From contig JAXDDX010000049.1 of NCBI GenBank assembly GCA_034670405.1, positions 2,108,001 through 2,172,000 of the forward strand: a DNA stretch of 64,000 nt, written 5' to 3'. The notes beneath the pieces are model-generated. The model saw only the letters and a list, made by a program, of their open reading frames with translations, was not told the origin of the DNA and ran no database searches. Shown here piece by piece: positions 37,934 to 63,081 of the stretch. The translations under genes were made by a program, and so were the position numbers. This stretch comes from Hoplostethus atlanticus. Taxonomy: Eukaryota; Chordata; Actinopteri; Trachichthyiformes; Trachichthyidae. Position 1 is the first letter of the stretch. Every line of letters begins with the position of its first letter.

Positions 37934-37974
37934 AACAGTATGTGTGTGTTTGTGTGTGAGAGAGAGAGAGAGAG

Positions 37975-38026
<52 letters not shown>

Positions 38027-38056
38027 TATGAGTGAGTGAGTGAGTAAGTGTATGTG
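37934..38056. repeat. compound (GT)n/(GA)n microsatellite
   Basis: Alternating blocks of GT and GA repeats, ending in GAGT repeats. It lies just upstream of the presumed herc1 first exon. Confidence 0.95.
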
Positions 38057-39830: not shown

Positions 39831-41206
39831 ACCAAGAAGTTTCAACTTTTTAAGCCTAAAAAAATTTTATCCAATGACTTTCAAGGCCATGAGTATAGGT
39901 AATCAAATTTGAGATAATTTAAGCTTTTTTCAGGACTTGCAGATACCCTTAGCAAGATTTGTCGTAAACCGGTTTTGAAAAATAAAGTAATTGACAGAAA
40001 AGTTGTTAAATCTAGTAACAATGTCACCAAGTTGGTAACAGTTCATGTCAGAAATGCCATCTACGCATCCAATCAGGCGAAGTCTGATGCTTAGCGAATT
40101 ACTGAGTAGTGCTATTAAAGTGTGCCCTCTGCTGGTCGGATTGTGCCAAAAGACAAATGATTCAAAGTCAATTTTTTCAAGTTTGTTTTACTGTTTGTGT
40201 TTTTTTTCTAGTTGGCACGAAAAGAAAAGGCTTTGTTGGTCACCAACCAGTTTTATAGTGGGTATTGAGGTGAATGTGCTAGGCTACGTGCTTTAGATGG
40301 GAATCTATGTGTCGCTTGTAGTCTGCTTATTTCCTTTTTGTTTATTTGTGTTTTGCTTGTCTTTGTGTATCTACCCTGCAAACTGCAGAATCATGTAGCC
40401 TACTATTCTCAGTGATGTTGTGGTAAATAAAAGTTGGGTAAACAATGACCTCTAGTAAGTCTCTGATCTCTGATTATTATAAGGCAGACAACCACCTATA
40501 TAAACAAAAATCTATACTTCCAGAGAAAAACATTAATTTATGCTTTTACCTTAAACACCCTATCTTCATATAGCCTAATTTGCTATTTTCTTTTAACTAT
40601 CCTACTATAATTTTACCTCACAAAGGTTTGAGTTAGATTAAAAAGGTGGGTAAACTCTATTCCACAAATAAAAAGGTAAGAACATTGAGTTTATGCAGAT
40701 TTACACTCCTCTATATCGCTGGGTATTCTATTGCAACATATTTGACAATATTATTTAATGTCCCATTCATAGAAATAAGATTGCGCGCGCCTGCTACTGT
40801 GCAAACCGTTCAGCCAAACATTAAATGTATTGATGCAAACTGGAGTTGTAGCTCTTTAGCGCTCACACGAAAAACAGACCAAAGATAACTTATGACATCA
40901 GGTCACACGAATTTCAATTCCTGGATGGCGGTGCAGTGTTAATCCCACTTCCACGCCGGATTTCTAAAAAAGGGGCTTGCTGGCAAAGGGACGACAACAC
41001 CGGATTGAGGAAATTGACGAGGGCAAACTATGTGCAAAACAAAGTTGTTCAATGCTGATAACCATACAACCTGATGAACCATAGGTCACTCCACTCAAGT
41101 CGCCCAGAGGTGGTCCAGCTCTCTGTCCAGAGAAAACATCTTTCCGAGATCGTTCATCCAAAAGGCAGCAGCCTTTCAGACGTCCTCCGATTCCCTACAT
41201 CCAACG

Positions 41207-42524
41207 ATGTCTTTTCTCCTTTTCACAGTGTTGTCTTCAATTATTGTGCGAGATGTTGAGGCGTGGGGCGCCAATGTCAAGTACGCAGTGAACTGCCCCG
41301 AGAGATGTAACACGGAGCTGTGTGGGACACAACGGTGTAGACGGACCGTCCTGGATGATTGCGGCTGTTGCCAGGTCTGTGCAGCCGGTAGAGGGGAACA
41401 CTGCTACCGCACAGTGTCGGGGATGCATGGGGTGAAGTGCGGACCAGGATTATTCTGTGAGTTCTACAAGGATGAGGACGATTATGGAGACGAATATGGC
41501 ATTTGCAAAGGTATATTGACTCACCGTGACGCACCTGCTGCACATTAAAGAAAAATAAAATCAAAATCTAGTCGCCTAATATGCTATGCCAGCATGCTAA
41601 GTATTTGCTATGTTTTGACCAGAGTGAATATCTGCTGCATCAAATCCAATATTACGTGATGTAAATGTTATCTTTTATATGTCTAGTATTTGTCGAATTC
41701 TAACAATAGCATCATTATAATGACATTAGCCCATGGCTATAGGCCTATACCACGTGCTGACCTGGATGCAGGCTTGTTTAAGTATGATATGGATATTTAC
41801 ATTTAAGTCCACATTGTCTGACGCTCAGAGTACATACCTTTGAAACATTGCTACTGTAGCTGTCCAAGTGTGGTTTTTTTGTCATTGGCCTATTTCACTT
41901 GAGCAGTGGTTATGTTAACTGTGGGCATGGTTCTATCACACTCAAAATCCCCTGTATCAGCTTCAATTAGATACACCAACCGCTTACACCATTGTTCTGT
42001 GAAACAAAGTAGCCTATATCTGTTCTGTCTTTACAGATTGTATGTATGGAACCTATGGGATTGAGTGCCGTAAGACATGCAACTGCAAAGGAGGCATCTG
42101 TGACAGAGAGACAGGGGTTTGTCTCACCTTCAAATTCTTTGCCAAAGTCCCCAGCAAGCTCAACACTCAACCTCAAGCAGGTAATTCAGTAAAGTTAACT
42201 AATAAATCAAATACCTCATACATTCATACATCTTTAAAAAATGTGTTTATATTATTTGTGACTCTGGGGCTAAAGGCTCTGAATGTTTTGTTTTTTTTAC
42301 CAACTAGAGTGGTATGTTTGTGAAAGACGTGTACAGTTTATACCTCAGATGGCACACCTGTATTAAATGATGAAAAGGTTTTCTTCCCTAGCTTGAGAAA
42401 CTCATGAACTTTTTCATTTGTATTTTCAGGGGGAGAGGTCGGCTCAGGAGAAGTCAGCAATAGCCAAAACACAGAGCAATACACGGACAGATCCACTGCT
42501 ACAAAGTGGCTCAACCCTCGCTGA
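41207..42524 (+). CDS. esm1: ESM1 (endocan), secreted dermatan-sulfate proteoglycan, complete
   Basis: Three exons: 41,207-41,510, 42,037-42,180 and 42,430-42,524, with GT/AG junctions in phase, giving 180 residues (human about 184). Residues 1-19 form a signal peptide with cleavage likely after DVEA. The mature protein begins WGANVKYAVNCPERC and contains an IGFBP-type cysteine-rich N-terminus with RRTVLDDCGCCQVCAAGRG and CYRTVSGMHGVKCGPGLFC. Exon 2 adds the second cysteine-rich segment (DCMYGTYGIECRKTCNCKGG). Exon 3 encodes GSGEVSNS, where the SG flanked by acidic residues is the likely glycosaminoglycan attachment serine, and ends KWLNPR, the same end as the human protein. ESM1 is an endothelial secreted proteoglycan linked to VEGF signalling. 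The gene is divergent from herc1. Confidence 0.96.
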
Positions 42525-44239
42525 CAAGCATTGACAAGACTGAATCTATTCGGTGTAAATATAGCATAATATTAACTTATAAATGAAGGATATATTTTAT
42601 TATGTTAAAAGACCAAAACTTTTTTACAGCATTTTGAAGGTTTATTTGATTTCTTTGTTCTGATGAAATAAGCAGAGTTTGTCAAGTAAAATGCAAATAC
42701 TCTTCAAATTCACCTTTTTTAGAGCAAATTATTTAAATTGATCTTGTGGTCTGCAACCATTACCCATCTTAGCTAGCAACGCAGACATGAATCTCATTTA
42801 GTGTGCCTTTATACTTGTTTGTTGAGGAAATAACAGTTAAAACAAATTTCACAATTGAAGACCATGCATTTTTATATGGTTTACAAATGGGATGCAGCGA
42901 TATTTTTCACGCATCAAACCATTTCATTGCACTAAATCTTTTGAGGTTCTCTTGAATGATCTTTTATTTATATAACTGAAATACTGGCATGGAAAAGGTC
43001 ATGTATATTACACCAGCCAATGTAAAGGATGCTCTTACAATTAAACCAAAGTTATCATTGAAAGAACAACTTTGATTGTAGTGGTTTGCCTTTATTGTAT
43101 AATTTGTCTGTTTATTGACTTAATTAACAATGCTTGTTTCAAGTAATCACATTAACTACACAACATTAACAACAATTTGGTTTATTATTATATTACGATA
43201 ATTACAGGCTAGGCAGTAGTAAATTGATATGCATTGAATTTTCTTGCACAACTGTCATTCAACGTAATCATTTGATCTCACTCACATACACCTACATGAG
43301 TAACCACACAACAGCAACAACATCAATAATAATAATACAATCAAAGTGCTGTAAAATAAAAGATAAATAACAGTCAGTTATAATAAAGGGAAGTCAAACA
43401 ATACTAAAAAAATACTATGGCATAATGAGAGCATTTACAAATGATCAGTTATGAAAAAAGTTTCTAAATATGAGTTTTCAGTTTTGTCAGAGATACAGAG
43501 ATAACTAATTATTTTTCTTCAGGGATATTGAAAGTGTAGGTACCTTAATGACAAATGCTTCATCAACATTTGTCTTTAATCTGGACTTTAGTACAGTCAT
43601 AAGACCTCTTTCTGCATATCAAACCCAATGCTTCTGTACACAGGGAGTAAAATCTCCATGATATAAGCTGCAAACATTTTATTGCTTTTAAAGTAATCAA
43701 TAAAATCTTAAAATCAGTTTAAAATTGTAAGGTAGCTAAAATGGGAGTAATATGATCTTTCCTCTTAGTTCTATTTAACAGCCTTGATTCTGCATTCTGA
43801 ACTAGTTGCAGACAAGAAAGAGCATTGTTGTTGAGGCAAGAATACAGAGTTACAGTCAGTCAGTATGAGTCAGTAATAGTCAGTATGAGATGAAAGGTCA
43901 CAAATAGAAATTACCTTATTTTAGAGAGATCTCTTAACTGGTAGAAACAAGACTGAACAGCTTTTTGGACTTCAAACCACAAAATGACTCCCACATTTTT
44001 GGTAACAAGTTTCCTATTAATTTCTAGGTTGCCAAGATTATTATGAGTTTTTCCATTTGACAGGAAAAATATGGCAAGCCAAGATTTGTCATAACTTGAA
44101 GACTTCATCATATATCTAGACTTTCTGTAAACAAATCTGAACACAGCTGATTAAAAATGTCAAATGTCTTTGTCGTGGCAGAGTTATTTATATGGGGTGG
44201 TATGTGATAAGCTGTTGGTAGCAGAAAAATAAGAAATGT
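42525..44239. other. esm1 3' flank and repeat-like intergenic sequence
   Basis: AT-rich. The esm1 3' untranslated region must start here; AATAAA occurs at 43,355-43,360 but within repeat-like sequence, so the polyadenylation site is not determined. From about 43,340 to 43,870 the text resembles an old copy of the 39,519-39,830 repeat family. Confidence 0.5.
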
Positions 44240-45345
44240 TAAAAGTTACCAGAGAAAAATAAATTCTTTGGGATAGGATCATATAATGGATCTAGTATCT
44301 TTGGAAACTCTGAGGGGGATCTCTGACCTGGGATATCTGGATCTGAAGTGAAGGGACCTGGTAACTTTAGAACTGGTGTGTGGGCTGGACTAAATATTTC
44401 TGGGCACATGATGGAAGAATCTGACATCTCTGGATGCATATCGTGGAGACACCTGACAGCTCTGAAAATAGGGTGGGTGACCTGGCAACTCTAGTAATTA
44501 GGTGGAAGAATGTGGGAACTCTGAATAAGGAGAGGAGAAGGAAACCTTGCTTCTATGAAGAAAAGGAGGGGACACTGACATGGGAGGAGAGTGGAGGGAC
44601 ATCCAGGTATTTCTTTGTAGGAGGTGGGAAAAGGCCCTCATCTCTCTGTGAGGGATATAAAAATGCTGCTTTTTTAGGAGAAGTCTGTAGAGGGGTCCTG
44701 GTTTGCAGGTCCTGGTCCTAACTCTGAATCTCTGGGACTTCCAATGCCTTGGAAAAGAGTTTAGCACCCGTTTCCTTCAGGCACATTAAGAATAAGTGCA
44801 TGTGTTTGCATAATAATTTTTTGCTGCCCATGATGATATGAAGAGGAACATCCAAACATGGAAGCAAAGTGGAGATAATAATTCCAAGCAAAAGGATTGA
44901 AACGGTGATTCAAAGCACATTGGCCTGCATTGCAGGGGCCACAAGGTGCTGTTCAAAGGTACAAAGTGGAGAGCAGAGGAAGGAGTTATTGGGGTAGAAA
45001 GGAGTAGTGGAAGGACAGACATTATCACTGGTTGGAGGAGATTTGCAGTGTGATTCTTCAGTGAGTGCAGATGTAGGGAGAGGCTCTTCAAAAGCAGGAT
45101 CAGTTGTACTGAATATATTTTCTTTTAATACCCCTCTTCATCTCGTTCTTGACAGCAGCAAGCTTGGCTTCCCCATTACATGCTTCAAGTAGGTAATCAT
45201 TGCTATGATGTAAGTCTCTCTACTCTTCTCTCAACCCCTCTACGGAGAAGTTGGCAGAACCGGTGTGAATCTTTTTCCTTAGAGAGGGAACTGGATTTCT
45301 TCATTGTCTAAGTCGAACTCTGGCAAGTGAGTGGCATCCCATGAT
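44240..45345 (-). pseudogene. unrecognised proline/serine-rich coding remnant
   Basis: Several minus-strand frames over 1.1 kb have protein-like character but are broken by stops. One at 44,239-44,439 reads KLPGPFTSDPDIPGQRSPSE; another at 44,786-45,091 is leucine/proline rich; near 45,270-45,345 there is SWDATHLPEFDLDNEEIQ. On the plus strand the first part shows a loose repeat of TGACANCTCTGGA-like phrases. No family is recognised. It may be a decayed lineage-specific gene or an untranslated region. Confidence 0.2.
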
Positions 45346-47412
45346 TCACTGTGGAAATGGAAACTAGAAAAAATATTAGTTACCTTGGGAAAGGATGGGA
45401 TTGTATCCTGAGTTGCATCCTCATTTTTAACAATAGTGGGCATAGAAGGAATAACCTTGTCAGACGTTTTAACTCAGGCTTTAAGTTTATAGAAGTCCTC
45501 AACAAAAGGTTTACATTTGATCCTTTACCTTGGACCAATAACTATAATTGAAATACAGAACAAGTTATGCAAGAAATGTGTATTCTACTCAAGTGACATC
45601 ATATTGTATTACAACAAACATAGTAATCATAGGTAGGCATTTAAGAGTCTAGATAAGAAAATAATACATTCAACATCTTAATATTGCCATTCTTCAGCAT
45701 ATAATCTGCAGAGTCTCTGGATGTTTTCTCTGTGATATATTATGTCGGTTTATGGTACATTCTGGGCATGTACTGCTCTAAATCACCAGGATATATTCTG
45801 CTCAAAATCTTCAGGACGAACAAAGGAACAAGGGCATTGTTCTTGAGCTAAAGAAAATCCCACTGACGTTGTTTTCTTTGTTATACATTTGAAAAATGTT
45901 AAATAATGAGTGTCAAAACACAAGTCAAAATTAAATTAGTTCACGTTACAATTTAAAGAAACTTTGTAATAAATGTGTAAAATAATTGTAATAATTAAAT
46001 AAAATAACTGAAATAACAAAATAAAACATATTAATGTCTATGGACCTTCTTAGACTTCTTGAACTTTTCCTAATAACATTCCTGACTGAACATATCAATG
46101 ATAAGTGATCCTTGATAGGGGAAGATGTTCTTTGCTCTCCTTCACAACAAAACAATCCTCTACAATACCACACTACGCAGAGGTAGAATACTAAACATCC
46201 GGAAGTCAAAAACACGTTTGGTCACAACTGCAAAATAAGCCAGCTGTGGTTTAAAAACAGCTCTTATTGGCCTCACCTCTGACTGTTGCTGGTACACAAA
46301 TGTTTTCCAGTATTCAGCTTGTTTATTTCCTGTGCTTCCTGACACCTGTGAAAATGGCCCTACTTCCTGTTGTTGTTGTGTCTGCCCAGGACAGGAATCT
46401 AAAAGCCAGAACGTTTTCAAGTGACACACCAAAAGCCTGGATTATTTAAGTGAAACACAACTGGAAGACCTGACTTCTGGTCAGCAGATATATCAAGACA
46501 GCACATTTCCTATCCACTTTATCTCAATTCTTTCCTGAAACACAACTTCCAACACATAAACACAGACGAGTTAGGGGAGGAGGGGTGTTCACAGACTTTG
46601 CACACTAATCAACAACCAAGCTATCACAGAGACATCTTTAAAAATGTGGCAACTTGAATGGGCTTTGATATATGAAATATGCCTGAACAAATATGATCCT
46701 ATGAATAGTATATGTTTTTCTAACCCTAATCTCACTGAATGACAAATTGAGTCTGGTGGTAAGAAGGCAGGCCTAATAAACTCTATAAGCAGCAGCAGCA
46801 GCAGCATTCATACATCCCATGAATGCATGACATTTTGAATGTGAGGCTATTCTGTTGCCCTTTGAAAGCAACAGGTTTTTTTTTCTTACATTGACATTTG
46901 ATTATAATGTAGGATCAAGAGAGTGGTAAATTTAAATTGAAACCTGAGCATTAATGTATGGTGAAGTTCACTGCTGTCTTTTATCTATGACAAGCCTCCT
47001 CAAAGCTTCATGTGACCAGATCAAGACCTGATGTATCTCCTGATCCCAAAGACGAGGTGACATGCAGCGAAACAGACAGGTAGGACAATAGGAGAGCTTT
47101 CTGCGTATGAAGGCCGGGGTGTTGATAAGTGTTGCATGCATGTTCCTCTCATTCCCCTGAGAACCGACAGGCCGAGGTCTCGCAACCAAACAAAGGACCC
47201 TGGAAAATAACAGGAAGGTGTTGGTGAGAAATACCCTTTATCTGACTCCCTGAGCACGTCACTGCCGCCTCCACAGAAACAAAGGTGCGTGAACGAAGTA
47301 GTAAATAACACTGATTTACTGCAAATAGACGTTCTGGTATTTACAGTTGGGTCCTGCTTCAACAGGTTGTTTACTATGCTCTGGAATGGTCGCTTGATTA
47401 TTGAAGGCAACA
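45346..47412. other. intergenic, no gene recognised
   Basis: Short open frames on both strands show no family resemblance or splice support. Sequence quality and composition are ordinary up to the Polinton boundary. Confidence 0.6.
46793..46806. repeat. short (CAG)n run
   Basis: About five GCA/CAG units in intergenic sequence. Short and interrupted. Confidence 0.8.
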
Positions 47413-47418
47413 CACACG
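47413..47418. repeat. target-site duplication, left copy (CACACG)
   Basis: Six bases immediately before the terminal AG of the element. Identical to 63,076-63,081. Confidence 0.9.
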
Positions 47419-47850
47419 AGTAGTAATATATGTACCGCCTCCTGTCAAAAAAAGTTTGATGGATTGACCTTTGACCCCATTTGATTGATTGACAGCTTGT
47501 CAAAGGTGACAGTTTTGATTGACAGCTTGTCAGTATTTGACAGGTTTGATTGACAGCTTGTCTGACGTCCTTTTGATTGACAGTTTGTCAAAGTTGACAA
47601 TTTTGATTGGACGCCTGTCATTTAAAAATGGGTCAGTTTGAATGATCCCCCAGTGTTATGTGTCATGTTGTGACCTTTTTAAAATTATTTAATGATCCTA
47701 ATGTTGGGGTATTTCCGGGGGTTTGTGGGGGTTGGAAGCTTTCATTAAATTTGGGGTTTTTGGGAACCCTGAAAGGGGGGTTTTTGGCCCCCCGTGGGGC
47801 CTTGGGGTGTGTTTTTGGCCCGGGTGCTATGGGAAAGTGTTTTTGTTTTA
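47419..47850 (+). repeat. left terminal inverted repeat of the Polinton
   Basis: Bases 47,419-47,609 are an exact reverse complement of 62,885-63,075 (191 bp). From 47,610 homology to the right end continues to about 47,850 but with many substitutions that extend neighbouring base runs. The first part contains about five spaced copies of a TTTGATTGACAGCTTGTC-like unit. Confidence 0.92.
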
Positions 47851-50133
47851 TGATCCTATTGTTTCAAAAGGGTTATTTTCAAACGGGTAAGGTTGAAAAA
47901 GAAAAAGGAAAAAGAAAAAAAAAAAAAAGAGGCGGGTTTTTAAAAAAAAGGTTTAAATACGGGGGGAACCGGACTTTTTGGGGTCATCTTTTGGGAAAGG
48001 TCTTTTTTGGAAAGGGCAATCCACCCGTTTTGGGGCCCCCCTTTTCCAAACACCTCAAAAACCCCATCGGGGGATAACCCAGGGTGGGGTTTGTTTGACC
48101 CTTTCAGACCCCCGGACCCTGAGAAAAAGAAGATGATTTTTTTGGGGCCGGTGGTCGAAACCGTTTTGCCCCCGTCAGAAAAAAATAAAACCCCGGGCCC
48201 TTTTTAAATAGCAAAATGTTTCCGTGGGGTATGTTGCAACCCTTGTTTTTTCAACAAGAAAACTAGGGCAAGATGAGACAGAAGGGGTGATGGATATGAA
48301 GGAATGATGAGAAGATAAAAAAAATTTAAGCCATGGCGGGGGGGGGAGGGGGGACATGGGGAAAATCTGGGCCCGGGACCGAACCTAAACTTTCCCTCAG
48401 AAAGTGGAAGAATATATAAAGGGGGAATCGACGTTGATGAGCAAAAGGTCAAGCGAAAAACAAAATTTTGGGGGGCCCTTTTTTCAAGACTTGTCCCGCG
48501 TCTCCCTTTCAGAGGTGTAATTTTTTAAAGGCCATCATGCATATGTATCTAAAAAAGTTTTTTAATTTCAAAGCGGAAACCCAAGGGGTTTGGGGGTTGT
48601 AAAAAACCCAACCTGGGCCAAAAGAAGGGGCCTTACCTGTGTTTTGGGGAGACATGCCTTTTTTATTTTACGGGGAAAAAGGGTTTTGTGATAATATTTT
48701 ACAAAGTCTTTTTAGAAATTTTAATAAATTTTTAGGGGGCATCTAAAATATATATTCAACCCCTGAAAAATTTTGGTTTTTTTTTTTTTTGGGGCCCTGA
48801 AACGTGGCTGTCGAGTCAAGCAGGGGGGCATTGACAAGAAAAATGGTATTTTTTTTAAAAAAAAAAACTCATCACCCTGCCAATGAATTCTAACATCTTT
48901 GAAGTGTCCCAGGGTGGGTGGTGTCCTTTTGAGAATAAATTAAACCCGAAAAAGGGAATACGTGACTGTGAAAAAAAAATTTTTATTATTTTTTATTTTT
49001 TTTTATTTCAATAAATTTTTTGGGGTATCGATATTGTAAATAAGATTTGGGGTCTATGTATTTTTTGGTACTGTATTTTGGGTTTTATGAGCAAAAAAAA
49101 AAAATGTAAAAATAAAATGCCCTTTCCCAAAACTTTAATGATTTTTGGGACTCCCCATTCTCTTCTCTTTTGGGTTTTTAGGCATCACCAGGGATGCCAA
49201 AAATTTTTCCCGAAAAATTTATTATGGACCTTTTTGAAACCCCCGGGTATTTGGGGTTATTTCAAATTAAAAAAAAGGGGTTAAAAAAAATATCGGGGTT
49301 CACCCTTTAAAAAATTTAAAGGGGGAAAGGGTTTTTAAACAAGGGAAGGGGGCTTTACATTTTTTTTGCAGGTTCAAAAAAATTTTTTTAAAAATCGGGT
49401 TTTTAGTTACGGGTTAGAATGGACATTTTCAGGCGACTTGGTGGAAAAGGGCCCAGTACTAGTGCAACCGATGGGTTTGCGTTTATTTTGCCCCAATTTT
49501 CATGGGAGTCTTTTCAAAATCGCATGGGGGTTCGTTTTTCTTTTTTTTCCTTTTGGGGGAAAAAAATTTTGGGGCCCAAGGGGTTTTTGTAAAACATTTT
49601 AAACACAGGGAAACTTTGTCCCAAAGGAAATTTTACAAACAGTGGGAAAGGAATTTTTTTTAAAAAGGGTTCTTTCCCAAGGACTGATGGAAAGTTAATA
49701 TTAAGCATTTTCAATTTTAAACGGGCCCAAGGTGTTTTGGTGGAACGTTCAACAGGACTCAAAAAAAACTGTTGTGGAGATTTTTTAAACGGGGTTTAAA
49801 ATTCACATCGTTAGTGATAAACGGGGGCGGTTTGGTGGGGGAGCTCCAACAGATTATCTAGATCGTTTTAAAAGGGTTTAATCTAAATCAAGTAAATTTA
49901 AAGGGGAAAAATTTTGGAGAAAGTTGTTTGTTTAAACAACCTTAAAAAACAAACCCGGGGTTTTTTAAAAATTTAAAGTTTTTTTTGGGGGAAAAATTAA
50001 ATTTTTTAAAAACCCCTTTTGGCCCCCCCGTTTTTAAAAGGGAAGAAAGATTTTCAGGGTATTTTTTAAAAAGGGGGTTTTTGGAAACCGGAACCCCCGG
50101 GAAAAAAATTAAAAAAAAATTTTGGGAAAAAAC

Positions 50134-50166
<33 letters not shown>

Positions 50167-53100
50167 TAAAAAAAAAAAAGTTTTTAAAAGATAGAAAATT
50201 TATTGGCTAAAAAAAGGGAAGGGGCTTTTAAAAAAAATGATGCGGGTTTTTAAATGGAAGGATGGCGGGAAAAATTCAATTCCGGGGTTTTTTAGGGGGT
50301 TTTCAATATCTAATGTTAAAACAAACTTTCATTCTACTTTTTGGCAGAGTAGGTGTAAGCAAAAACCCAAATATGCCCAACGGGGGTTTTTTTTTTTTTT
50401 GGACATTCCCCAGTAATGCTTTCATCTTCATTTTTTAACCCCCCGAATAAGATATGGAATTATAGAAAAAAAATTAGTAAGACTTTTAAATCTAAGGAGG
50501 TTAAAGTAGGGGTAACAAAGGGTTTTTCCCGGCCCAAAGGGGAAAAAGTTTTTAGGAAAGGGCCCAAAGGGGAGTTTGTGTTTTAAAACCCCAAAAATTT
50601 TTTAGCATTATCTAACCGTGGGGAAATTATGACGGTTTTTCCCCCAGGCCCTAGGAAAAAATTTAAAAAAAATTCGGATATTACTAAAAAAGGAGGTTTT
50701 TAGAAAAACAACTAATTTATGAAGCATTAAAAACCTTTGGGGGTTTCTTTTCGGGGCCCAAAAATTTAGGCATTGTTTTTTCAGGGGACAGTGGCTTTTT
50801 TTGGGGAAATTCACCCCGGAATTATTTTCCCTTTGGGTTTTTCAGAGCGGGGAAAGGGCCTTTTTGACGCAGTTTTTTTTTAGGGAAAACCCCCGGTGGT
50901 TTCCCCATGGGGGGAATTTTTTAAACCAAATGTTTTTTTAAAACGGGAATAGCTTATCAGTTTTGGAGTAGCCCAATTTCCCCCCCCAAAGTTTTTAATT
51001 TTACGGAACGCGTAAGAAAAAATTTGATTTTTTGACAAGACTCCCCTCGTCCCTTCCCCAAAAATTTACTATCGGGACATCGAGTTTTTAAAGAAAGCCC
51101 AAAACCAAACCCAATTTCCCTTTTTCCCCTAGGGAAAAATTTCATTTTAAATATACACTTTAGCCCTATTAAAAGAGCCCTATAGACAGGTCAAAATGGT
51201 ACCCAACCCGCGCTAGGGATGAGGGAAAGTTACCAGCGTATTTTTTAAAAATTTCAAGGGGCCCAGTGCTTTGGGATTTTACGGAACCAGTACACATTTA
51301 GGGGAGAGGGTTTGGCGGCATTTTCCCGCAGTTTTTTCCCAAAAGGGGGCCCACCCCCTTTTAAAAAAAAGGCCGGGACCACGCAAAACCCTTTTAAAAA
51401 AATTCGGGCCGATAAAATTTGTAGCGGGTGTTGCAAATATAGAAAAGCCGCCAAAAGACAAGAAGAACCCCCAAAAATCCCGGGTGGGTTTTTTGGTCCC
51501 GTTTTTTTTTTAAAAGCCCCAATTTAAATTCCCCCACCAGTCGTGGGGGGGGGTTCCAAAATTTTTTAAAAGACCCCAAGAAAAAAAAAATTAAAAGCGT
51601 GGGTCACTTTTAAGAAGAACTTTTTAAAACCCCTTAAAGGCCCGAAAAGATTATGCAAAGGATAAATTTTAATTTAAATTTAGAAAAAGGGCCCCTTTAT
51701 ACACAGTATGTCAGGGGAAATGTTTTTAAGGGGAAAATTTGGATTTTAATTCCCCGAGGGAACAAAATTTGGGCAATAAAAAAATTCCAATTATTAAAAG
51801 GGGTTTAACGCCTCGGGTGGCCATCACGGGACAGGGGGTCCTTTAGAGTTTTACATATGGGGCAAGCACCCGGAAGACTATATGATTTTAAAAAACCCCT
51901 TTTTTTTGCTTTCCTTTGTTAAAAACAGGGAAAGCTAAAGGTAAGATATAGGGGCCTTTGGGTGGATGGGTAAGGGTTTTATAAATTTCCCCGGGCTGTA
52001 ACTATTCCCCCGGGTCGTTTTATGGGGGATAGTTTGGTTTAGCAGTTTTTTCAATACCTAGTATCGGGATATAAAATTTTTGCTAAATATGGATGGGAAA
52101 GTTTGGGAAAAGCCCCAATTTTAAATTGGGGTTTTTTTTAAAAGTTGTGCCGGGGCCCACACAGGGCCCCCCGATTCTTTTCCCCAGGGAAAAATGAGGG
52201 GCTAAAGGAGAGGTTCGCCCTTTAGGGCACCCAGTCATTTGAAAAAACGGGATTTCGGGGGCCCTGTTCACCCCGTTTTAATTTTTTCAAAAAAAATTAT
52301 TATTTGAAAGGGGTTGATTTAAATTTAAATTCTTAGGAAAAAGTGTTTTTTTGCTTCATGTTAGGGGGTAAACCCAATACACGGTGTTAAAATCTTGTTG
52401 TCTTTAGCGTTTTTTTGGTTAAAAAAAAGGTTTTTTGGGGGATAGTATCAAGCGGGGCCACCCCAAAGCTTTCCCCCCCATATTTAATGCTAAATCCCCA
52501 TGGGGGGAAATGTTTTTTCTATTTTAAAAACTACTCCATACGGCGGGGGTACCAGATTTTGAAATTTAAAGACAATTTTTTTTTGGGGGTCGGGATCCTA
52601 AATTTTTCATTATGGTTTGTTGACAAAAAGCTTTTCCAGGGCAAAAGGTCGAAACCCCTTCAGATTTAAAATTATGATACGGGTTTCCCTAGTATTTTCC
52701 CGGACGGGAAAAATATCCGTAAAAATTTTTTCCAACCGATTTTAAAAAAACGATATTTACCAGGGGTTTTTTAAATTTTAATTAGGCAAAAGGGCGACAG
52801 CTGAAAGACCGGGGGGGGCTAGCCCCTCTTTGATGATTTTGACAAAAGGCAAATAATTGTTTTTTTTTTAATTTAAAATTGCAAAGGGCTGTGGACAACA
52901 CGTTTTAAATGATCAGAACAGGAAATGTCGGCTAAGGCCCCGGTTAAAAAACAGTTTGGCTGAAAATTTAAACCCTGATTGTTTATGCTTTTTTTATGAC
53001 TTTTATTTCAAAAATTACCCAATGCGGGAAAAGTACTTTTGGGGGCCCACTATTAATTTTAAACCAACCAGATAAAATTCCCTAGAGCTGACATGGGTTT

Positions 53101-55125
53101 TATTGAAAAATTCCCCAAAAAGGGGCTTTTTTTTTTTGGGGAGTGTTTGGTTGTGTTCAGTTTTCCCTACGAAATTGAAAGAGGGGGGGCCCCCCCATGT
53201 GTTTAGTCAAAAAGACCCAGCACGTTTTCCCCGGTGAAATTGGGTTGGAATTTCCATAAACCCCCGTGAGGGCTTTATTTTTTTGTTTTTGGAAATCCCC
53301 CTTGGCATTCTGGACCCCATATACAGTTTTCCAAACCATTTACGGGGACAATGTGTTTTATTCTACACCCCAAGTAAAAGACAATTGGTCCAATCTGGGA
53401 AAAACATTTTTGTGTTTTTTTATTTAATTTTCAAGAAGGGGGTGTCCTAAAAAAATGTATTAAAAAAGTTATAGTGTAATCTGCCCTGTTCGATGTTTTG
53501 GGTTTCTGTAAAATTTTTTTAACCGGATACGGGCCCGAATATGTTTTACCCATTACGATTTTCCCGGGATCCCGGGAGTGCATGTGCTAGTTTGGGTAAT
53601 ATATTTTTCCATCATGTTTAGGGAGGTGATGAAAAAAAAAACGACCCAAGTCAAAAAATTTTTTTTTTTTTTTTCGCTTTTAGTGTTTTTTTTTTAAACA
53701 TGAAAGATTTTTTTTTAAGCAATACAAAATACAAAAAAAAAAATTATATTTCATTCAATAAGGGTAATATACAAAAAAAAATAAAAAGAGGAAAAAAAAA
53801 AACATTTGAACAAACAAAAAAAAAAAAACCAAAAAAACAAAAAATATTAAAACAGTAGGTACCCCAAAACTTTTAAAATGGGTCCGAAAATAAAAAATGT
53901 TCTTTTTCACGGGAAAACTTTTTACTACCCGAGAAGAAGGGCTCTGGGAGCTCAAATTTTCGATTGGGGAAAAAAGGCATTATTTATATCCCGTAAACCC
54001 AAGGGGGCTTGCCGGGTGTTGGGGGATAGAGGTTTTTGAGGCAATTTTGATCAGTAGGCTTTTTTAAAAAAAGCGCCAAACCTAAAAGGTTGGAAGAATC
54101 ATTAAATTGTTTGGGAAACGGGGAATTCTTCAAAAATCTTAAAATGTGGAAAAAACCCCTTTTTCACATGCCATTAACAATAAGTTCCCCAAAGGCCCGT
54201 ATGTAAAACATTTTTTGGATTTTGCATTTTAAGGATGGGGTTTTCGTTACTTTCCCCCTTTTTTGAGGTATTGTGTTTTTTGAACCCCCTCAACCCCAAC
54301 GGCATTTTTTTTTTTTTTCAGCCCTGTTTATCTTTATTACATTTAACCAAAATCATTTATGAGGAAGGGTTTTGAGCGTTTAAAAATTTCCCTTTTTTTG
54401 GGCACCCCGTTAAACCAATTTGGGCAAAAAACGCTGTAGAACACGAGGGATATTTTTTTTGCTTTTTATGAAAAATCGGTGTTTGGAAACCCCCAAAACA
54501 TTCAGTATTTTCCTTATCCGTTTATTTTCGGGGTTGTCTAATTTGATTTGCGGGGAGCACTGGGTTTTTTTATTGCTTGAGTTTATGTTGTGGTAACCCG
54601 TACAATTTTTTTTTTGGGTAAGTTCCATGTGTCGGGGAAAAATTTACAACCTCTTGAAATAAGGGCTGGTGATAAAGGGTTTAAAGCGGGACCCAAAACG
54701 GGGAAAAGAAAAACCCGGTCCCCGTTGTTAAAACAAAAATTTCTTTCTTAAAATTTGAAACCCTTTTATCGGCCCGCAAACCCGGTCCCTTCTTTTGTTT
54801 TTTAAAGTTTATACTGCGTCTTGTTAAAGGTTTAGCCCCTTTTTTTTGAATTTAAGGGGTATTTGCAAATTTTTGTTGTTTAAAAACATTTGTGGAGTAG
54901 TTTAGAAAAAATTTCCTTTATTGGGAGGCCCGGGGCCTTATATAATAAAATTTTAGGGGTCTCTGTTTCTATGAATTGGTTTACGCCCTTTTCCGGGGGG
55001 TCATTGTTTTTTTTTGGAGTAGACAATGGGTGGTCTGACAAACCCCAAACCGTTTTGGTCCTTTGAGAAACCGAAGTCTTTGGGTTTTAATTTTTTTTTG
55101 GGGTTTTTTTTTTTTTTTTGGTTTT

Positions 55126-55157
<32 letters not shown>

Positions 55158-55779
55158 TTTTTGTTGGGTTTTTTTAAATTTATTTGTTTTTTTTTTTAAA
55201 ATAAAGAAAGGATGGTTGGGGGTTTAAGCTTTTGGTCTTTTTTTTCCCTAAAAATATTTGCCCCTTTAAAAAAACAGTGATTTCCAAAGGGTTAATTACC
55301 CTTTTTTAAAAACAAAAATTTTGGTTTTTTAAATTTTACCCGCCCCGAAAAAAATTCTCAAGTACCAAACATGAGGTTTTTTTTTTCGGGGGTTTTTTAA
55401 ATTTTTTTAAAAACTTTGGATTCCTTCCCCAATTTATTCCTTATTTTAACAAATTATTTTTTGGGGGTTAAAAGGGGTTGCAAAGAAAAAGAAATGGGAT
55501 TTCCTTAACAAAAAATTTATTTCCCTTATTTTCAACCCAAAATTTGACAAAAGGTTTTTAAAATTTGGGGAAAGGGGAAAGAAAACAAACTTTTAACCGG
55601 AAAAGGTTTCCGATTATTTAAAACCTTCTTTTTTTAAAATTTGGGGCCTTGAACCAAAAAAGGATGTGAAAAGGGAAAACCTTCTTGTTTAAACCCTCTC
55701 AGGGTTTTTTTACTGTAGGTTTTAAGGCCCCGAGCCTTTCTTTTTTTTTGCTTGAATTTGGTTCTTTTCTCTGTAGTTA

Positions 55780-58700
55780 TTAAACCCCCCCGTAGCTGAT
55801 TGCCCCAAAGTTTTCAACCCGTCTGCCTTTGTGTTCTTGGGGCGTGACAACTGCGGCGTTTTTTGGGGTTTTGGGGTGGGCACCCCTTACAATTTTTTCC
55901 ACGACTTGTTTTGATGTTGCAGTAGGGTAGCATTTAGGACCTATGACAGTAATCGGTAATTTTAATTTCCTGCTCGGAACCCCAGATTTCACCCTTTATT
56001 TATTCATCTGTCAAAACCCCAAAAAAAGACCCCCCTGGTGGAATCCCTTCCCCCCCCCGTGACACAAAGATTATTATCGGTGTTAAATAAAGACCCTTCT
56101 TGTAAAATTTTTCCCCAAAAACGTACAGCCTGAGTTGGCCCTGGGCGGGGGGTCATTGCCCCCCACAAAAACATTTAAATTCTAGGTTAGGGGGCTTCCT
56201 AGTTTTGTAGCGGCCCCTGACCGAGCCACCGTGTCAGAGATTTAAGGAAAACTGACGTACAAAATATTGTCGTAAAAATGAACTGTAAAGGAAAACGTTT
56301 TTAGGTCAGTTTAGTTGGGGGTAGTAAGGGGCCGTACGGGAGGAAAAAACGTCCCCCACAAGCTGTTCAAAAAGAGCTTGTTACAGCTTTTTGACGCTTT
56401 ATTACAAGGGTTTTTTGGGATTTTAGTTTTTATGCCCTTTTCTGTGTAGGAAATTTTTGTACTGTGTTGTGCCTGAAAATTTTTTATAGGGTGGGGTTTT
56501 CCTTTAAGCCCCTTGCTTACACTTTTAAAAAGGGTTTTTAAAAATTTTTAAACGAGTGTCTGAATGTTGGGGGAAAAACCCTACCTCGTCAAAGGTCGTT
56601 TTTTGTATCCCTTTTTTAAGAGCTTTTTGAGTTTGAATGACACCCCTGTGTTTTAATTTTGTTCTTCTTCCCTATGTGCCGGGATTTTAGATGTTGGTTA
56701 AGCTCCCGCGGCCTTTTTGGGAAAAGGGGAAAAATAATTTTTCATGACAAACTGTATGGGAGGCCCCAGGGTGATTTCGACCTTTGGGGGGAGTACAGAA
56801 ACCCCTTTCCCCAAAACCAAAAATTTCTTATCGAAAAGGGCTCAAATTTTCTAAAGATAAATTTTTGGGTGTCCCAAGGATATGGTTCCCAGGGCTGCAC
56901 TGTGGGGTAAAAGAGAAGTGAAGTCGTAGAAACCCGATTTTTTTTAAAGGGGTTGTATGTTGTTTTTAGTAGTTTATAGGCATTTGTTTGGGCCCCCCAA
57001 AATAGAGCTTTTCGTGGGTTTAAACCTTGTGGGGGGTTTGTAGGTTTCCCCCAAAAACCCCTTTTAAAAAAGCCCTCTGTTTTTTCTTTTTTCCCCTTCA
57101 CAATTTTAGATAATTCCACACAGGGGACCCTAGTCTTTTTTGAGGACTGGATTTTAACACTAAATCCTTTTCTTTTCGACCAAATTCGAAACCTGTGAAG
57201 GATTTTTATGGGCCCGGGTTGTAGAAAGATAAAAACCGGTGATAAAAAAAACCCGCAAATTCGTGGGGCCCTATGGGTGTTTGGGGGCATATTTGTAAAG
57301 AAAGGGGCCAAACTGCTTTTCTTCCCGCATTTGGGGGCGTGTTGAATTTATACCCTGTGGTTTGCTAAAAATCAAAACCCCTTTGGAAAGGAGACTTCGA
57401 AAAAGGTTTTTGTGGGTGGTTTTACATATGCTCCCCGTATGTTTAGAGTAAAAGTGTTTCCGGAAAAATTTTGTTTTGTAGATGGCCCTACAGCATGATG
57501 CCCGTGTTGGTGATGAGGGGAAACAAAACCTTTAAAAAAGAATGAGGGGTTTTTAGGGAAAGGCCCCTACACGCCCTTTTGTTTTAAAAAAACAAAATTT
57601 GGAAAAATAGCGTCCCAAATTCTTTTGGGAAATCAAAAAAATCTCTTTACGGACGGGTGTTTTTTCCCGGTCATGAATGTGTTTTGTCCCCTCTGACTTT
57701 TTTCGTATATAATAGGAAGGGTCTGGGTAAGGGCCCATGTAGGGGTTCATTCGCTTTGTATTTTAAAAGTGTTTGGGGGAAAAAACCCCCTTTTTACATC
57801 GTCCCAAAACCAACGCTGCGGGGGGTTTTTGACAATCGCCCTAAGGGGGAAAGCTAAAAAATTACCCCAACTGTTTGAATGCTTCTTCGACTCAGAATTT
57901 ACCCCACTTCCCCGGGGGGACCCGTTTAGGTGTAATGCCCCGTCTTGTAAAATTTCCCCTCATTAAATTTTAGTTGTCGAATCCCGAGGCTTGTGTGTAC
58001 AAATGTGTAAATTTTTTTTACCCTTCACACTTTACTGTCTGACCCCAAAATTTTTGGACAATTGAGAGGTGGCCCCCCGGGTCAAAAAATGTTATTGCAG
58101 TCAAAAATTTTCTCGTGTCTCCCATCCTTTTTTAGCGAGTTTTTAAAACATTTGAAGAAAGTTTTTTGTTTTTAGACGTTCCCCTTTGGGGTAGGGGTGG
58201 ATGTAGCAAGTGTGAAACTCGTAGCGAGGGGGTCCCCAGTGTTACACTTTCTTCTGAGCATGTTTTTGGAAACGGTATATCGCTACCGTCAGCGGTTTTT
58301 GGGGGTTTTTGGGACAAAAAATAATTACCCCACAAGTCGATATTTTGAACGTTTGCCGGGGAAATAAATCCCTGTGGTTTTTGGGGAAAAAAGGCAATGT
58401 GTTTTATAACATTTCTTTGATTAAATTAGGCTCACTGGCCAAATTTTTTCGTTGGGGCCCGGGGGGTGGGGAAAAGTGTTAGACACGTTTCAGTGGGAAA
58501 TTTTCTTTGTTGGGTTTCCCGTATGAATTTTCATGGTTTTTCCGGGATTCGCAGAGAGAGTGTTTCCGAAAAAAGTTTTCTTTTACAATAAGGTGGTAGT
58601 TTTTCATTGTGGGAGTTTTTAAACCTTTTAGTGTTTGGGTGGGGCTTGTCGCTGTTTGATAAAAACCCGGTTTTTGCGTGATTGGGGTGGTGGAAAATTT

Positions 58701-59665
58701 GGGAAATTTTTTAAAATTTAAGGGTGCCTTCAAAACTAGAGGGCATCAGGGAAAGTATCCCTTTTGAAAAAGGGTGTATTTCCCCCAAATTCTGTGCATT
58801 TTCTTGATAAGCCCTCTCCCCCTGGGAAATTTTTACTGCCCCAAACCCTAACTTTTGCATTATTTCTGCAATGATTTTCGTTCGTTGTACGACAATTGAG
58901 CTTAGGGTGAGCAATAAGTGGAAAAAGCACAGAATTTTTCCCCATGTTTTGGGGCTTTAAAGACAAGGTCTTTTTTTTACGGAAATTAAACTCATCATAA
59001 GGTTATGGGTCCCAATTTCAAAAAGTTAAACCTCCCCCCTTTTGTTTGGGGGACTGTAAGACAAATTCTAATTTTTGTCATCTGTAGGGTTTTGGGATTA
59101 CTCTGAAACCCCTGTGCTTTGCTTAAAAAAAAAAGTCGCAATTTTAGTATCCCTCAGGGTTTTAAAACGGTTTTTAAAAATCGTAAACGAGAGAGGGACC
59201 GAAACTCATTTAACCGATGCCTGCCGGGATTCTCTGTACAGTGGTTATCACATCCCGTTGGTTGTGTCTCACAGATTTTGGGAAAAAACTTTTAAATTAT
59301 CAAAGATATGCTTTAAATTATTGGTGCCCAAACTTCCCCCGCATTAAAACCCTGGGATATTTCGGTGTTTGAAAAGGGGCCATCCCCCCGTATCTCTTGG
59401 CCCCAAAATTTGGTGTTGGCCGGATAACTATTATGCTCAAAAAACATTTTCCCGTGATTCGGGTGTGTAGGTTCAATTTGTCAAAGCTCTCTGCTGTAGC
59501 TGTCATCGCCTCCCCTTCTCTCATTAAATAAGCCGGTTCCATGTTTCTTTGCTGTAAAGGAAGGTGTATCCAAACCCTCTCACTATACTTTTTAGTCCCA
59601 TATTTCAAACTTTTCAACAAGCTACATTGGGTGGCTGTGTCTAATTCATCAAAGTCTTGCGGCAA
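55780..59665 (-). pseudogene. Polinton protein-primed DNA polymerase B, frame broken many times
   Basis: Landmarks of Polinton/adenovirus-type PolB occur in the right order on the minus strand. These are an exonuclease-side segment GPYPDPSYY (57,709-57,738), a degraded GGRTNA-like segment RKALFWGAQTNAYKL (about 56,973-57,014), a degraded motif A region (SLLFYPTVQ, about 56,893-56,922), motif B KLFLNSLWG (56,353-56,379), a degraded motif C with a TD core (about 56,070-56,087), and GPKCYPTAT (55,915-55,941). A clean 115-codon frame at 59,318-59,665 may be the N-terminal part, but this is tentative. Spacing suits a protein of roughly 1,200-1,300 residues. Frame changes between segments coincide with base-run distortions, so the breaks may be sequencing error rather than true mutations. 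Confidence 0.75.
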
Positions 59666-61403
59666 AATCTCATCTACCCTGTATCCCCAAACGGTTTTAG
59701 CCTGAAGACCAAGTCTTGCTCCTCCCCATATCTTTATCCCTCATTAGTGGGTATGTTTATGGGTTTTCTTGAAATTTTTACGACCCTTCACTGATTTTAC
59801 GATCTTTTCAGGGTTTTTTCAACAGCAAAAAAAAAAAAAAAAAACCCTTTGCAATTAAAGTATTCCCAAAAAAAAACCCCTAAAAACCCGGGTGACACTT
59901 TTTGGTATATTTCACAAATAAAAATTTTTTTTTTGTCGGAAAAGTTTTTATCTCAGCAAGAAGGTCTGTGTGTGATGGGCGTATCGCGAGTTTTGTTTTC
60001 TTGATGGCTTGTTTATGCTAAACAAAAATTTTTGGGGGGAAAAATCGTGAGCTGTTCATAAAATTCATTATTTTTTTAAAAAAAGATTTGGATATGCCTC
60101 CCATGCGCAAATTCCCCGGATTTGCTCAACAATTGGACATTCGATTTGCTCACCCTTGCAGTTTACGGGCGGGTGGCGGTTTTGGCGGTTTTGGGTTTGA
60201 CGGACTTTTCTTCGTGAAAATCTGTGTCAGCCCCAAAATCAAAACGATCCCGAGGTTTCATGTCGTCATCAAATAGCTTGGGCCGATGCGGAAATTTTAA
60301 AACTTCCCGGGAGGCGCTGTTCCCTCCACCCTTACTAAAAAAAAAGACACATTAGATGGTATAGTCATTAGGGGAAATTTTTATAAAAGGGATTTAATTT
60401 TAGGTTTTTTAAAAATGGATGTTTAGGGGGTTAATTTTATTTCCGTTTTCAGAAAACTTGTGCGGTTTTTTTTCCTTTGGCCCTGTGTTCAGGTTTTTTT
60501 AAAAAGACGATTTGAAATGTTATTACATATTGTTCAAAATTTTTTTAAAGCCCCGGTTGATGTTTTTTTAAAAAAAAAAGAATGAAAAATATGAGATTTG
60601 GTTTATTTTTAAATTTTAATTTTAATTTATATCAAAAATTCCCGGTGTTTTGGGGGGAAAAAAATTTTTTAAAGGGGAAACCTTTTGTGCGCGGGTTTTT
60701 TTTCCCGAAGATAAGGGGAAAAGCTTTAAACAAAAATGAACGTTAAAATCGTTGAAAAATTAAATCATTTTTTAAAAAATCCCGGTTTTAAAAAATATGC
60801 GCCCGAATGTAGAAATTTAAAAAAATACTTTTGGGTTTGGGGTTTAAAGTCGGGGACCCCTGGTATAGATTTTAAAGTTCCTGGTTGATTTTAATTTATT
60901 TTGTTTCTTTCTAGAGAGAAATAGGGGAAAAAAAAATAGAAATCGTGTATAGGCGTTAAATAGTTTAAATACGTGGTAATGCATCTCAAACTAAAAAACC
61001 TTTATTTGAATACATTGGATTTACCGTGGCTTGTAGAGGCCTCTGTAAATCCCCAAATGTGTTGCATTCCCCCCCAATTTACCAAAACAAAAAGAAAAAC
61101 AAATCGTATTAGTTTTTATAAAAATGGGCTTTTTGGTTTAAAGAATATTTAATAGTTAAATAGAATACTTACAGTAAACAAACATTTGTTTTTGGTTTTG
61201 GTCGATTCCGCAGGTTGAAACCCCGTTTGCGAAAAAAAGGGGGGGGTTTTGGGGGTTATGCAATGCGGGATGCGTTTCGGGTGGGCAACATACATCGGTC
61301 CGTGCGCCCTTTTATCCCCAAAGGGCGACTTTCGAAATTAAAACTTTCACATTTTAAAATTTTTGCGCTCCCAAAAGTAACGTGGGATTGGGCGGTTTAA
61401 ACC

Positions 61404-61649
61404 TTAATTTCTATCGTTTTTAAAAACCCGATGTTGGCGTTCGCCCCCCCCCTTGCGACCCAAAAAAGGCCTTTTGCCCCGAGCGTGCCAATTTGTTTGG
61501 CAATAAACCCCTTTATTTATCATCCGAAATAGTTTCCCCAATAGGGATTTAAAAAAAATTTTTAAAAAATATGGGGAAGTCCACCATCCCCAAAGGGCAT
61601 CTTCATCAGTGTCCAAAACAAAATTTTGGTTTTTGTCCCAAGGTATCAT
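61404..61649 (-). other. unrecognised open frame inside the Polinton
   Basis: An 81-codon minus frame starting MIPWDKNQNFVLDTDEDALW, with less run distortion than its surroundings. It is on the same strand as PolB and upstream of it. I do not recognise it; it may be part of a structural or accessory Polinton gene. Confidence 0.25.
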
Positions 61650-62055
61650 ACAGACACTCGTTCTGAGGCCCGGGCCCTATCCCACGGACTGTGGTTTTGT
61701 GTGTATGGTTTTGTTTTTTGTGTGTGTGTGTGGGGGATGTGGTTGGGGCGCACCCATGTGACAAAAACATTATTTATAAAAAACCAAAACCTTTTTTAAA
61801 AGGACTATCTTTTCACATTAGATTCTTTTTGTTGTTGGTTGTGTCCCGTGAAATTTTGCCTGTCTATTATTTTCTAATTTTTTGAAGTTTTTTTTAAAAT
61901 ATTTTGGTTTTATTATAACATGGCCAAATAGCCCTTTTCCTTTTACCCAAATTTGTATATCAACAGTGATGTAAAGATAAGTCCTAGGGGGGGTTTTTAT
62001 TTTTAGTAAAGAAAAAATCAGGGTTTTTAAAAACCCCAAAACCCGCATTTGCCAT

Positions 62056-62470
62056 AGATCAATAGACTTCCTTAAGGATTATAAAACAAATTGTCCATTG
62101 TCCATTGTTTGACAAGTGGTCAGTTAATGAGTATAAACAAAAACACTTTCCCATAGCTCTCCAGATGTCACACACAGATCCCCGTTGTCCCCTTGTTTGA
62201 CACTGATCAGTTAATGAACATAAAACTAAAACAGACCATAGTGCCCCTGGCAACACCCAGATCACCATTGACCATTGATTGACACTGATCAATAGACTTC
62301 CTTAAGGATTATAACACAAAAAACAGTCTCATGTGACATCCCACCATCCCGAAGAAGCACATCTGACATAGATCAACACCCTTCTGAACAATGGGAGCAT
62401 AAAACTAAAACAGGCCATAGTGTCCCTTGTGACACACAGCTCCCATTGTTTGAACCTGGTCAGTTAATGA
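62056..62470. repeat. subterminal interspersed repeats of the Polinton
   Basis: The phrase GATCAATAGACTTCCTTAAG occurs at about 62,057 and again at about 62,287. A second phrase of the type GTCAGTTAATGAGTATAAAC occurs at about 62,119, 62,206 (variant GATCAGTTAATGAACATAAA) and 62,459. Together they form a degenerate repeat array just inside the right end. Confidence 0.7.
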
Positions 62471-62478
62471 GTATAAAC

Positions 62479-62824
62479 CTAAAAACACATTCCATAGCCC
62501 CCAGGTGGTCCCACAACCCCACAATGCCCCTCAGTTGGTCATTACCCCCCGTTTCAGGATCACAAGAGCAATTGAATGACACATCCACCCACATCCTCGG
62601 GAATACCTCCTCATTAGGGTCATTCAATAATTAAAAGGTCTCAGATTTCCCCATTGTCCATTTAAAACTAAAACACTTTCCCATAGCCCCCAGGTGTCCT
62701 ACAACCCCCAATGCCCCTCAGTTGGTCAATACCTCCCTTTCAGGATCAAAAGCCCAAATGAATGACGCTTCCACCCACACACCCGGAAATACCTCATCAT
62801 TAGGATCATTAAATAATTAAAAGG
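62479..62824. repeat. two tandem copies of a ~160-bp subterminal repeat
   Basis: Copy 1 covers 62,479-62,638 and copy 2 covers 62,668-62,824. Both run from a CTAAAACAC-like start through CCATAGCCCCCAGGTG and ATGCCCCTCAGTTGGTCA to AATAATTAAAAGG. The second copy overlaps the extended right terminal repeat. Confidence 0.8.
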
Positions 62825-63075
62825 ACACAACATGACACATCACACAGGGCATCATTCAAAGCTGACACATTACTGACAGGCTGTCAATCAAAATTGTCAA
62901 CTTTGACAAACTGTCAATCAAAAGGACGTCAGACAAGCTGTCAATCAAACCTGTCAAATACTGACAAGCTGTCAATCAAAACTGTCACCTTTGACAAGCT
63001 GTCAATCAATCAAATGGGGTCAAAGGTCAATCCATCAAACTTTTTTTGACAGGAGGCGGTACATATATTACTACT
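62640..63075 (-). repeat. right terminal inverted repeat of the Polinton
   Basis: Exact inverted partner of the left end over 191 bp, then recognisable partner of the left sequence further in. This copy has ordinary base composition throughout and so serves as the reference for what the left copy should look like. Confidence 0.92.
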
Positions 63076-63081
63076 CACACG
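63076..63081. repeat. target-site duplication, right copy (CACACG)
   Basis: Six bases immediately after the terminal CT of the element. Identical to 47,413-47,418, which supports an intact insertion with no end erosion. Confidence 0.9.

What the first reader, a model, noticed from the sequence alone, without database searches (positions are those of the whole stretch)
47413..63081. Complete Maverick/Polinton insertion with perfect 6-bp target duplication
The two ends are exact inverted copies over 191 bp, start with AG, and are flanked by identical CACACG. The length between them is 15,657 bp. Each of these properties fits the Maverick/Polinton class. Identical termini and an unmutated duplication point to a recent insertion, possibly polymorphic or still active. 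Such virus-like elements encode DNA polymerase, integrase, packaging ATPase and capsid proteins and are thought to be related to adenoviruses, virophages and giant viruses.
Basis: partly seen in the sequence, partly recalled or inferred. Interest (0 to 1): 0.88.

Follow-up and report, generated by a model that had tools for sequence, protein, structure and literature searches.

The report
Maverick/Polinton insertion with garbled interior
A textbook virus-like Maverick/Polinton element sits in what looks like a vertebrate genome, but its interior is too corrupted by sequencing or assembly error to say whether it still works; its ends carry a regular row of sites matching a DNA motif bound by embryonic host regulators, which would be worth testing.

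Summary
Element 47419-63075 is flanked by CACACG, has 191-bp exact inverted ends and begins AGTAGT / ends ACTACT. This matches the published terminal signature of vertebrate Mavericks. A piece of B-family polymerase (Pfam DNA_pol_B_2, E = 9e-4, below the family cut-off) lies on the minus strand at 56347-56634. Integrase, ATPase and capsid genes were not detected.

(1) The interior, 47676-62050, is garbled: homopolymer compression 1.97 against 1.37 in host sequence. Where the left arm can be compared with its clean right counterpart, 22 of 26 mismatches and 20 of 23 extra bases copy a neighbouring base, which points to read or consensus error. So the inverted repeat is at least 413 bp, the 15,657-bp length is probably 1-2 kb too long, and broken genes here say nothing about activity. 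(2) Each arm carries a row of TGATTGACAG, the Prep:Pbx "DECA" site: 9 of 9 copies in the window, 0.24 expected.

Verdict: ordinary new member of a known kind; "recent/active" untested. The TALE-site row is a post hoc lead.

The parts
47413..47418 (.). left target-site duplication CACACG
   Evidence: sequence
63076..63081 (.). right target-site duplication CACACG
   Evidence: sequence
47419..47850 (+). left terminal inverted repeat; first 191 bp exact copy of the right arm, rest (47610-47850) aligned but error-laden
62663..63075 (-). right terminal inverted repeat, clean copy, at least 413 bp
47486..47583 (+). four TGATTGACAG (Prep:Pbx DECA) sites in the left arm
   Evidence: motif identity from PMC6023610 passages
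62881..63008 (-). five TGATTGACAG sites in the right arm, spacing 30, 31, 27, 30 bp
47676..62050 (.). interior with homopolymer inflation and neighbour-copy errors (sequencing/assembly artefact)
56347..56634 (-). piece of B-family DNA polymerase (PF03175 positions 323-386), below the curated cut-off
   Evidence: E 9.2e-4, 18.6 bits, cut-off 25.8; one open piece alone, 56314-56547, (E 0.0028, 17 bits)
56003..56174 (-). candidate polymerase motif C region, read by eye from two frames
   Evidence: fragments; motif recalled; no Pfam match to the pieces
56745..57347 (-). candidate upstream polymerase piece (201 aa open frame), read by eye
   Evidence: no Pfam match
51249..51524 (+). open piece resembling a small basic capsid-associated protein, tentative and by eye
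   Evidence: recalled resemblance only; no Pfam match
62474..62824 (.). 186-bp tandem repeat (1.9 copies) in the clean right end, overlapping the inner part of the right arm

Best explanation
A member of the vertebrate Maverick (Polinton) group inserted between host sequences. Inferred working: a protein-primed B-family polymerase copies the linear element from its tips, using the AGT-AGT repeat to jump back; a retrovirus-like integrase inserts the linear copy with a 6-bp stagger, giving CACACG on both sides. Shown here: tips, inverted repeats, 6-bp duplication and (weakly) the polymerase piece. Inferred from the family: protein priming, integrase, packaging and capsid. The interior as deposited is a low-accuracy stretch, probably raw or weakly corrected long-read sequence placed between clean contig ends (this cause is inference), so gene integrity and activity are undecided.
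For: End motif (AGT)2//(ACT)2, perfect 6-bp duplication, inverted repeat in the published 46-1447 bp range and length in the published 12,723-24,620 bp range (PMC8097293 sections). In 36 stop-masked frames covering 47600-63075, the only Pfam match with E below 0.1 is DNA_pol_B_2; 10 host frames gave one match, E 0.55. Artefact: at 26 mismatches the left base copies a left neighbour 22 times and the right base a right neighbour 3 times, Fisher p = 1.7e-7; 20 of 23 extra left bases copy a neighbour. The left inner arm's compression (1.93) is close to that of the whole interior (1.97), against 1.47 for the clean arm.
Against: The polymerase match is below Pfam's cut-off. No integrase, ATPase, protease or capsid match in any scan. 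The two-module strand layout is supported only by the strand of the polymerase piece and by an AT-skew change near 54.2 kb that 225 of 5000 permutations equal. A simulated neighbour-copy error run on host sequence reaches the interior's compression only at error rates above those counted in the arm, and then underestimates its long-run fraction (0.25-0.30 against 0.36), so the error model is rough.
Confidence: 0.92

Rival explanations
1. A Maverick fossil whose genes are truly broken: the frameshifts are mutations, not read errors.
For: 96% of vertebrate Maverick loci are degraded (PMC8097293). The longest open frame wholly inside the element is 201 aa.
Against: The mismatches and extra bases copy a neighbour on one arm only, and the inflated segment ends abruptly inside the element while both tips are identical over 191 bp. 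In homopolymer-compressed form the interior is not CpG-depleted (1.05, against 0.35 in host and 0.58-0.64 in host smeared to similar compression).
Confidence: 0.06
2. A different large DNA transposon or virus-like element with AG ends and a 6-bp duplication, not a Maverick.
For: No integrase, ATPase or capsid match was found.
Against: The full AGTAGT/ACTACT motif, size and polymerase piece together.
Confidence: 0.04
3. The inverted ends are an assembly palindrome rather than one element.
For: The interior is of poor quality, so a join error is possible in principle.
Against: The arms stop at the two tips, different host sequence follows on each side, and a 6-bp duplication flanks them; a palindromic join would not create that.
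Confidence: 0.02
4. The inflated homopolymers are biological (a mutational process confined to the element).
For: No comparable segment was found in 1-47675.
Against: A neighbour-copy pattern on one arm with the other arm clean fits no mutational process I know of.
Confidence: 0.01

Closest known systems
Vertebrate Mavericks / Polintons (PMC8097293), (AGT)2//(ACT)2 end type
   Same: End motif, 6-bp target duplication, inverted repeat length, overall size, a weak match to B-family polymerase.
   Different: Gene set and module layout unreadable here. The DECA-site row in the arms is not mentioned in the parts of that paper I read; its main text has no occurrence of 'transcription factor'.
Adintoviruses (animal Polinton relatives)
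   Same: Presumed same gene kinds; recalled from general knowledge and a search listing only.
   Different: Not compared; no sequence of that group was available.
Adenovirus inverted terminal repeats
   Same: Protein-primed replication from inverted ends. Jumping back on end repeats is stated for adenoviruses and expected for Mavericks (PMC8097293 discussion part 1). Host transcription factor sites (NFI, Oct-1) in the ends are recalled.
   Different: Here the candidate host sites are Prep:Pbx DECA motifs; the pattern TTGGCN5GCCAA (NFI, recalled) does not occur in the clean terminal 1,025 bp.

Membership tests
Vertebrate Maverick/Polinton | 6-bp end motif (AGT)2//(ACT)2 or other listed types | tested here: met
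   AGTAGT from 47419, ACTACT up to 63075 (definition PMC8097293)
Vertebrate Maverick/Polinton | perfect 6-bp target-site duplication | tested here: met
   CACACG both sides; among lengths 4-11 only 6 matches
Vertebrate Maverick/Polinton | terminal inverted repeats of 46-1447 bp | tested here: met
   191 bp exact, alignable to 413-432 bp
Vertebrate Maverick/Polinton | length 12.7-24.6 kb for intact elements | tested here: met
   15,657 bp as assembled; roughly 13.6-14.5 kb if the inflation estimates are applied
Vertebrate Maverick/Polinton | protein-primed B-family DNA polymerase | tested here: inconclusive
   PF03175 E 9.2e-4, 18.6 bits, below cut-off 25.8; leans positive
Vertebrate Maverick/Polinton | retroviral-like integrase, packaging ATPase, adenoviral-like protease, capsid proteins | tested here: inconclusive
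   no match in 36 + 9 stop-masked frames and 20 selected pieces; about 24% error (54 differences per 222 bases) in the comparable arm leaves little power
Vertebrate Maverick/Polinton | two gene modules on opposite strands pointing inward | tested here: inconclusive
   polymerase piece on minus in right half fits; AT-skew change near 54.2 kb, 225 of 5000 permutations as large
Potentially active ('intact') Maverick | eight intact intronless reading frames | not testable with these tools
   interior sequence unreliable
Recent or polymorphic insertion | empty allele with a single CACACG in other individuals | not testable with these tools
   no vertebrate genome could be searched; the genome search unanswered in 9 attempts

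The most novel reading that the evidence does not exclude
The terminal repeats of this Maverick are a landing array for maternal TALE homeodomain factors (Prep:Pbx). A row of 4-5 same-orientation DECA sites about three DNA turns apart in each arm would recruit host factors present in early embryos or germ cells, either as promoter/enhancer or as an auxiliary replication origin in the way NFI and Oct-1 serve adenovirus ends (recalled analogy). That would tie element activity to the developmental window in which germline copies are gained.
Probability: 0.15. Interest if true: 0.65.

Novelty: new member of a known kind. Interest (0 to 1): 0.3.

Why it matters
It adds one well-delimited Maverick, and it warns that frameshifted genes in such elements can be sequencing or patching artefacts. 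Surveys that score Mavericks as 'degraded' from frameshifts could undercount intact ones in similar assemblies. If the TALE-site row recurs in other Mavericks, it would give a testable answer to how these elements are switched on in the germline.

Tried and rejected
Tried without result: Pfam on 36 stop-masked frames across 47600-63075 (polymerase E 9.2e-4, DUF7915 E 0.74, nothing else up to E 1); 9 shorter plus-strand frames over 48000-51399 (nothing); 20 selected pieces out of the several hundred open ones (polymerase again, otherwise MtrE 0.14, DUF4528 0.12, EMC6 7.8, taken as chance); PHROGs on 3 frames (nothing); PDB with the polymerase piece (nothing); viral contigs with two translated pieces (17 and 11 pattern matches, none confirmed) and with the 21-base tip (none). 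Two degenerate polymerase-motif scans gave 1 and 3 contigs. Judged by eye from their reading frames only, L002-L004 look like phage or prophage DNA and L001 was not identifiable; I set all four aside as chance matches without a family search. A scan for three DECA sites in a row found one contig, L005, where they form a 22-bp tandem repeat; judged unrelated, not searched further.

Rejected: extension of the inverted repeat beyond 432 bp (score 260; 60 shuffles, mean 228, largest 276). NF-Y partner sites as in zebrafish blastula DECA regions: in the clean terminal 1,025 bp there is no CCAAT and one ATTGG at offset 364, well inward of the row at offsets 68-195; this counts against the simplest TALE/NF-Y reading. 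AT skew as firm evidence of strand layout (225 of 5000). Host gene searches in the PDB gave nothing; of 7 host frames put to Pfam one matched, an IGFBP domain in 41078-41545. A Walker-A-like stretch near 53.2 kb minus, noted by eye, had no Pfam match.

Full report
Observation. The element runs from 47419 to 63075 (15,657 bp). It is flanked by CACACG at 47413-47418 and 63076-63081; of flank lengths 4 to 11 only 6 matches. From the tips inward the two ends are exact inverted copies for 191 bp. The tips read AGTAGT and ACTACT.

Identity. In a survey of vertebrate Mavericks (PMC8097293; outline, results part 1 of 2, genome-mining section, discussion part 1 of 2 and term passages seen) the commonest end motif is (AGT)2//(ACT)2, with a 6-bp duplication, inverted repeats of 46-1447 bp and intact lengths of 12,723-24,620 bp. 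All four are met. Pfam scanning of 36 stop-masked frames over 47600-63075 gave one match with E below 0.1: DNA_pol_B_2, E 9.2e-4, 18.6 bits against a cut-off of 25.8, at 56347-56634 minus. Over 36 frames about 0.03 matches of that strength are expected for any family. Ten of twelve possible frames of host sequence 42000-47300 gave one match, E 0.55. By eye, neighbouring minus-strand pieces look like the flanking polymerase motifs (motifs recalled), but Pfam did not match them. No integrase, ATPase, protease or capsid match was found.

The interior is not reliable sequence. From 47676 to 62050 homopolymer runs are strongly inflated: raw/compressed length 1.97 against 1.37 in host sequence and 1.44 in the clean right end; the segment scores 1468.8 nats against 13.7 for the best segment in the sequence to its left. 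The left arm past position 191 can be compared with its clean right counterpart: 245 columns, 191 matches, 26 mismatches, 23 extra and 5 missing bases on the left. In 22 of 26 mismatches the left base equals a left neighbour; in 3 of 26 the right base equals a right neighbour (Fisher p 1.7e-7); 20 of 23 extra bases copy a neighbour. The compression of this arm piece, 1.93, is close to that of the whole interior, so the same error process plausibly covers it all. I infer raw or weakly corrected long-read sequence between accurate contig ends. It follows that the 191-bp limit of exact identity is where clean sequence stops (the arms align to 432 and 413 bp; no further extension, score 260 against a maximum of 276 in 60 shuffles). 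Length is probably overstated: the arm piece is 1.086 times too long, and simulated smearing of host DNA to similar compression gives 1.13-1.17, so about 13.6-14.5 kb is likely. Frameshifts inside the element are no evidence of decay. The simulation is rough: run at the rates counted in the arm it gives compression 1.69 only, and at rates that reach 1.9-2.0 it underestimates the fraction of long runs.

Age and activity. Identical 191-bp arms and an unchanged duplication fit a young insertion, and the interior is not CpG-depleted after compression (1.05; host 0.35; host smeared to similar compression 0.58-0.64). But polishing could make arms identical, the clean right end itself has low CpG (0.26), and no second copy or empty site could be looked for, because the genome search did not complete (9 attempts). 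Recent insertion is my inference; activity is unknown.

Mechanism. Shown: tips, arms, duplication, polymerase piece (weak). Inferred from the family: protein-primed copying that uses the tip repeat to jump back (stated for adenoviruses and expected for Mavericks in PMC8097293), integrase insertion with a 6-bp stagger, and packaging. The polymerase on the minus strand in the right half fits two inward-pointing modules; AT skew changes near 54.2 kb, but 225 of 5000 permutations do as well.

A lead in the arms. TGATTGACAG occurs 9 times in the 64-kb window and all 9 are in the arms: 4 left, 5 right, same orientation relative to the tip, spaced 30, 31, 27 and 30 bp; 0.24 expected, at most 2 in 100 shuffles. 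In the five right-arm copies the flanking columns vary (invariant: 1 of 6 upstream, 4 of 7 next, 1 of 10 after); the 10 motif columns are invariant, but that is true by construction, since I picked the copies by exact match. What it does show is that five consecutive units of the row keep the motif while the spacers drift. The 10-mer is the DECA site occupied by maternally deposited Prep:Pbx in zebrafish blastulae (PMC6023610, 12 passages seen). Against a functional reading: the copies belong to one tandem array, so they are not independent; the match was noticed after the fact; the two arms are one observation; the NF-Y partner site is absent from the row; in that paper one of seven DECA/NF-Y elements drove a reporter in HEK293 cells. 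A search for papers holding Polinton, Pbx and Meis found none; the listings of three related searches (9 papers, 10 shown of 40) show nothing evidently on the point by title and abstract start. Only open-licence papers were searched.

Host. The window looks vertebrate (CpG observed/expected 0.08-0.71 per kb over the 47 windows up to 47 kb, four above 0.45; an IGFBP-domain frame at 41078-41545). Teleost is my guess; the species was not determined.

Conclusion. A new member of a known kind; the interior is artefact-ridden; the TALE-site row is a modest, testable lead.

Noticed in passing
41078-41545 (+): Frame with an IGFBP domain (E 1.4e-8), looks like an endocan-like (ESM1) exon; gene name recalled. 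No PDB match.
   Followed up: partly
33063-34115 (-): 350-aa open frame on the minus strand with no Pfam or PDB match; possibly an exon of a very large host gene.
   Followed up: partly
13501-14355 (-): 284-aa open frame, also without Pfam or PDB match; may belong to the same large host gene.
   Followed up: partly
12151-12260 and 37952-38050: AT-rich minisatellite and GA microsatellite.
   Followed up: no
62050-62660: Clean subterminal stretch with several diverged short repeats (for example 62049/62279, 62216/62395) next to the right arm.
   Followed up: no
59318-59740 (-): 140-aa open frame in the 59-60 kb stretch, which has the lowest homopolymer fraction of the 1-kb bins from 48 to 62 kb; no Pfam match; could be an accessory gene.
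   Followed up: partly
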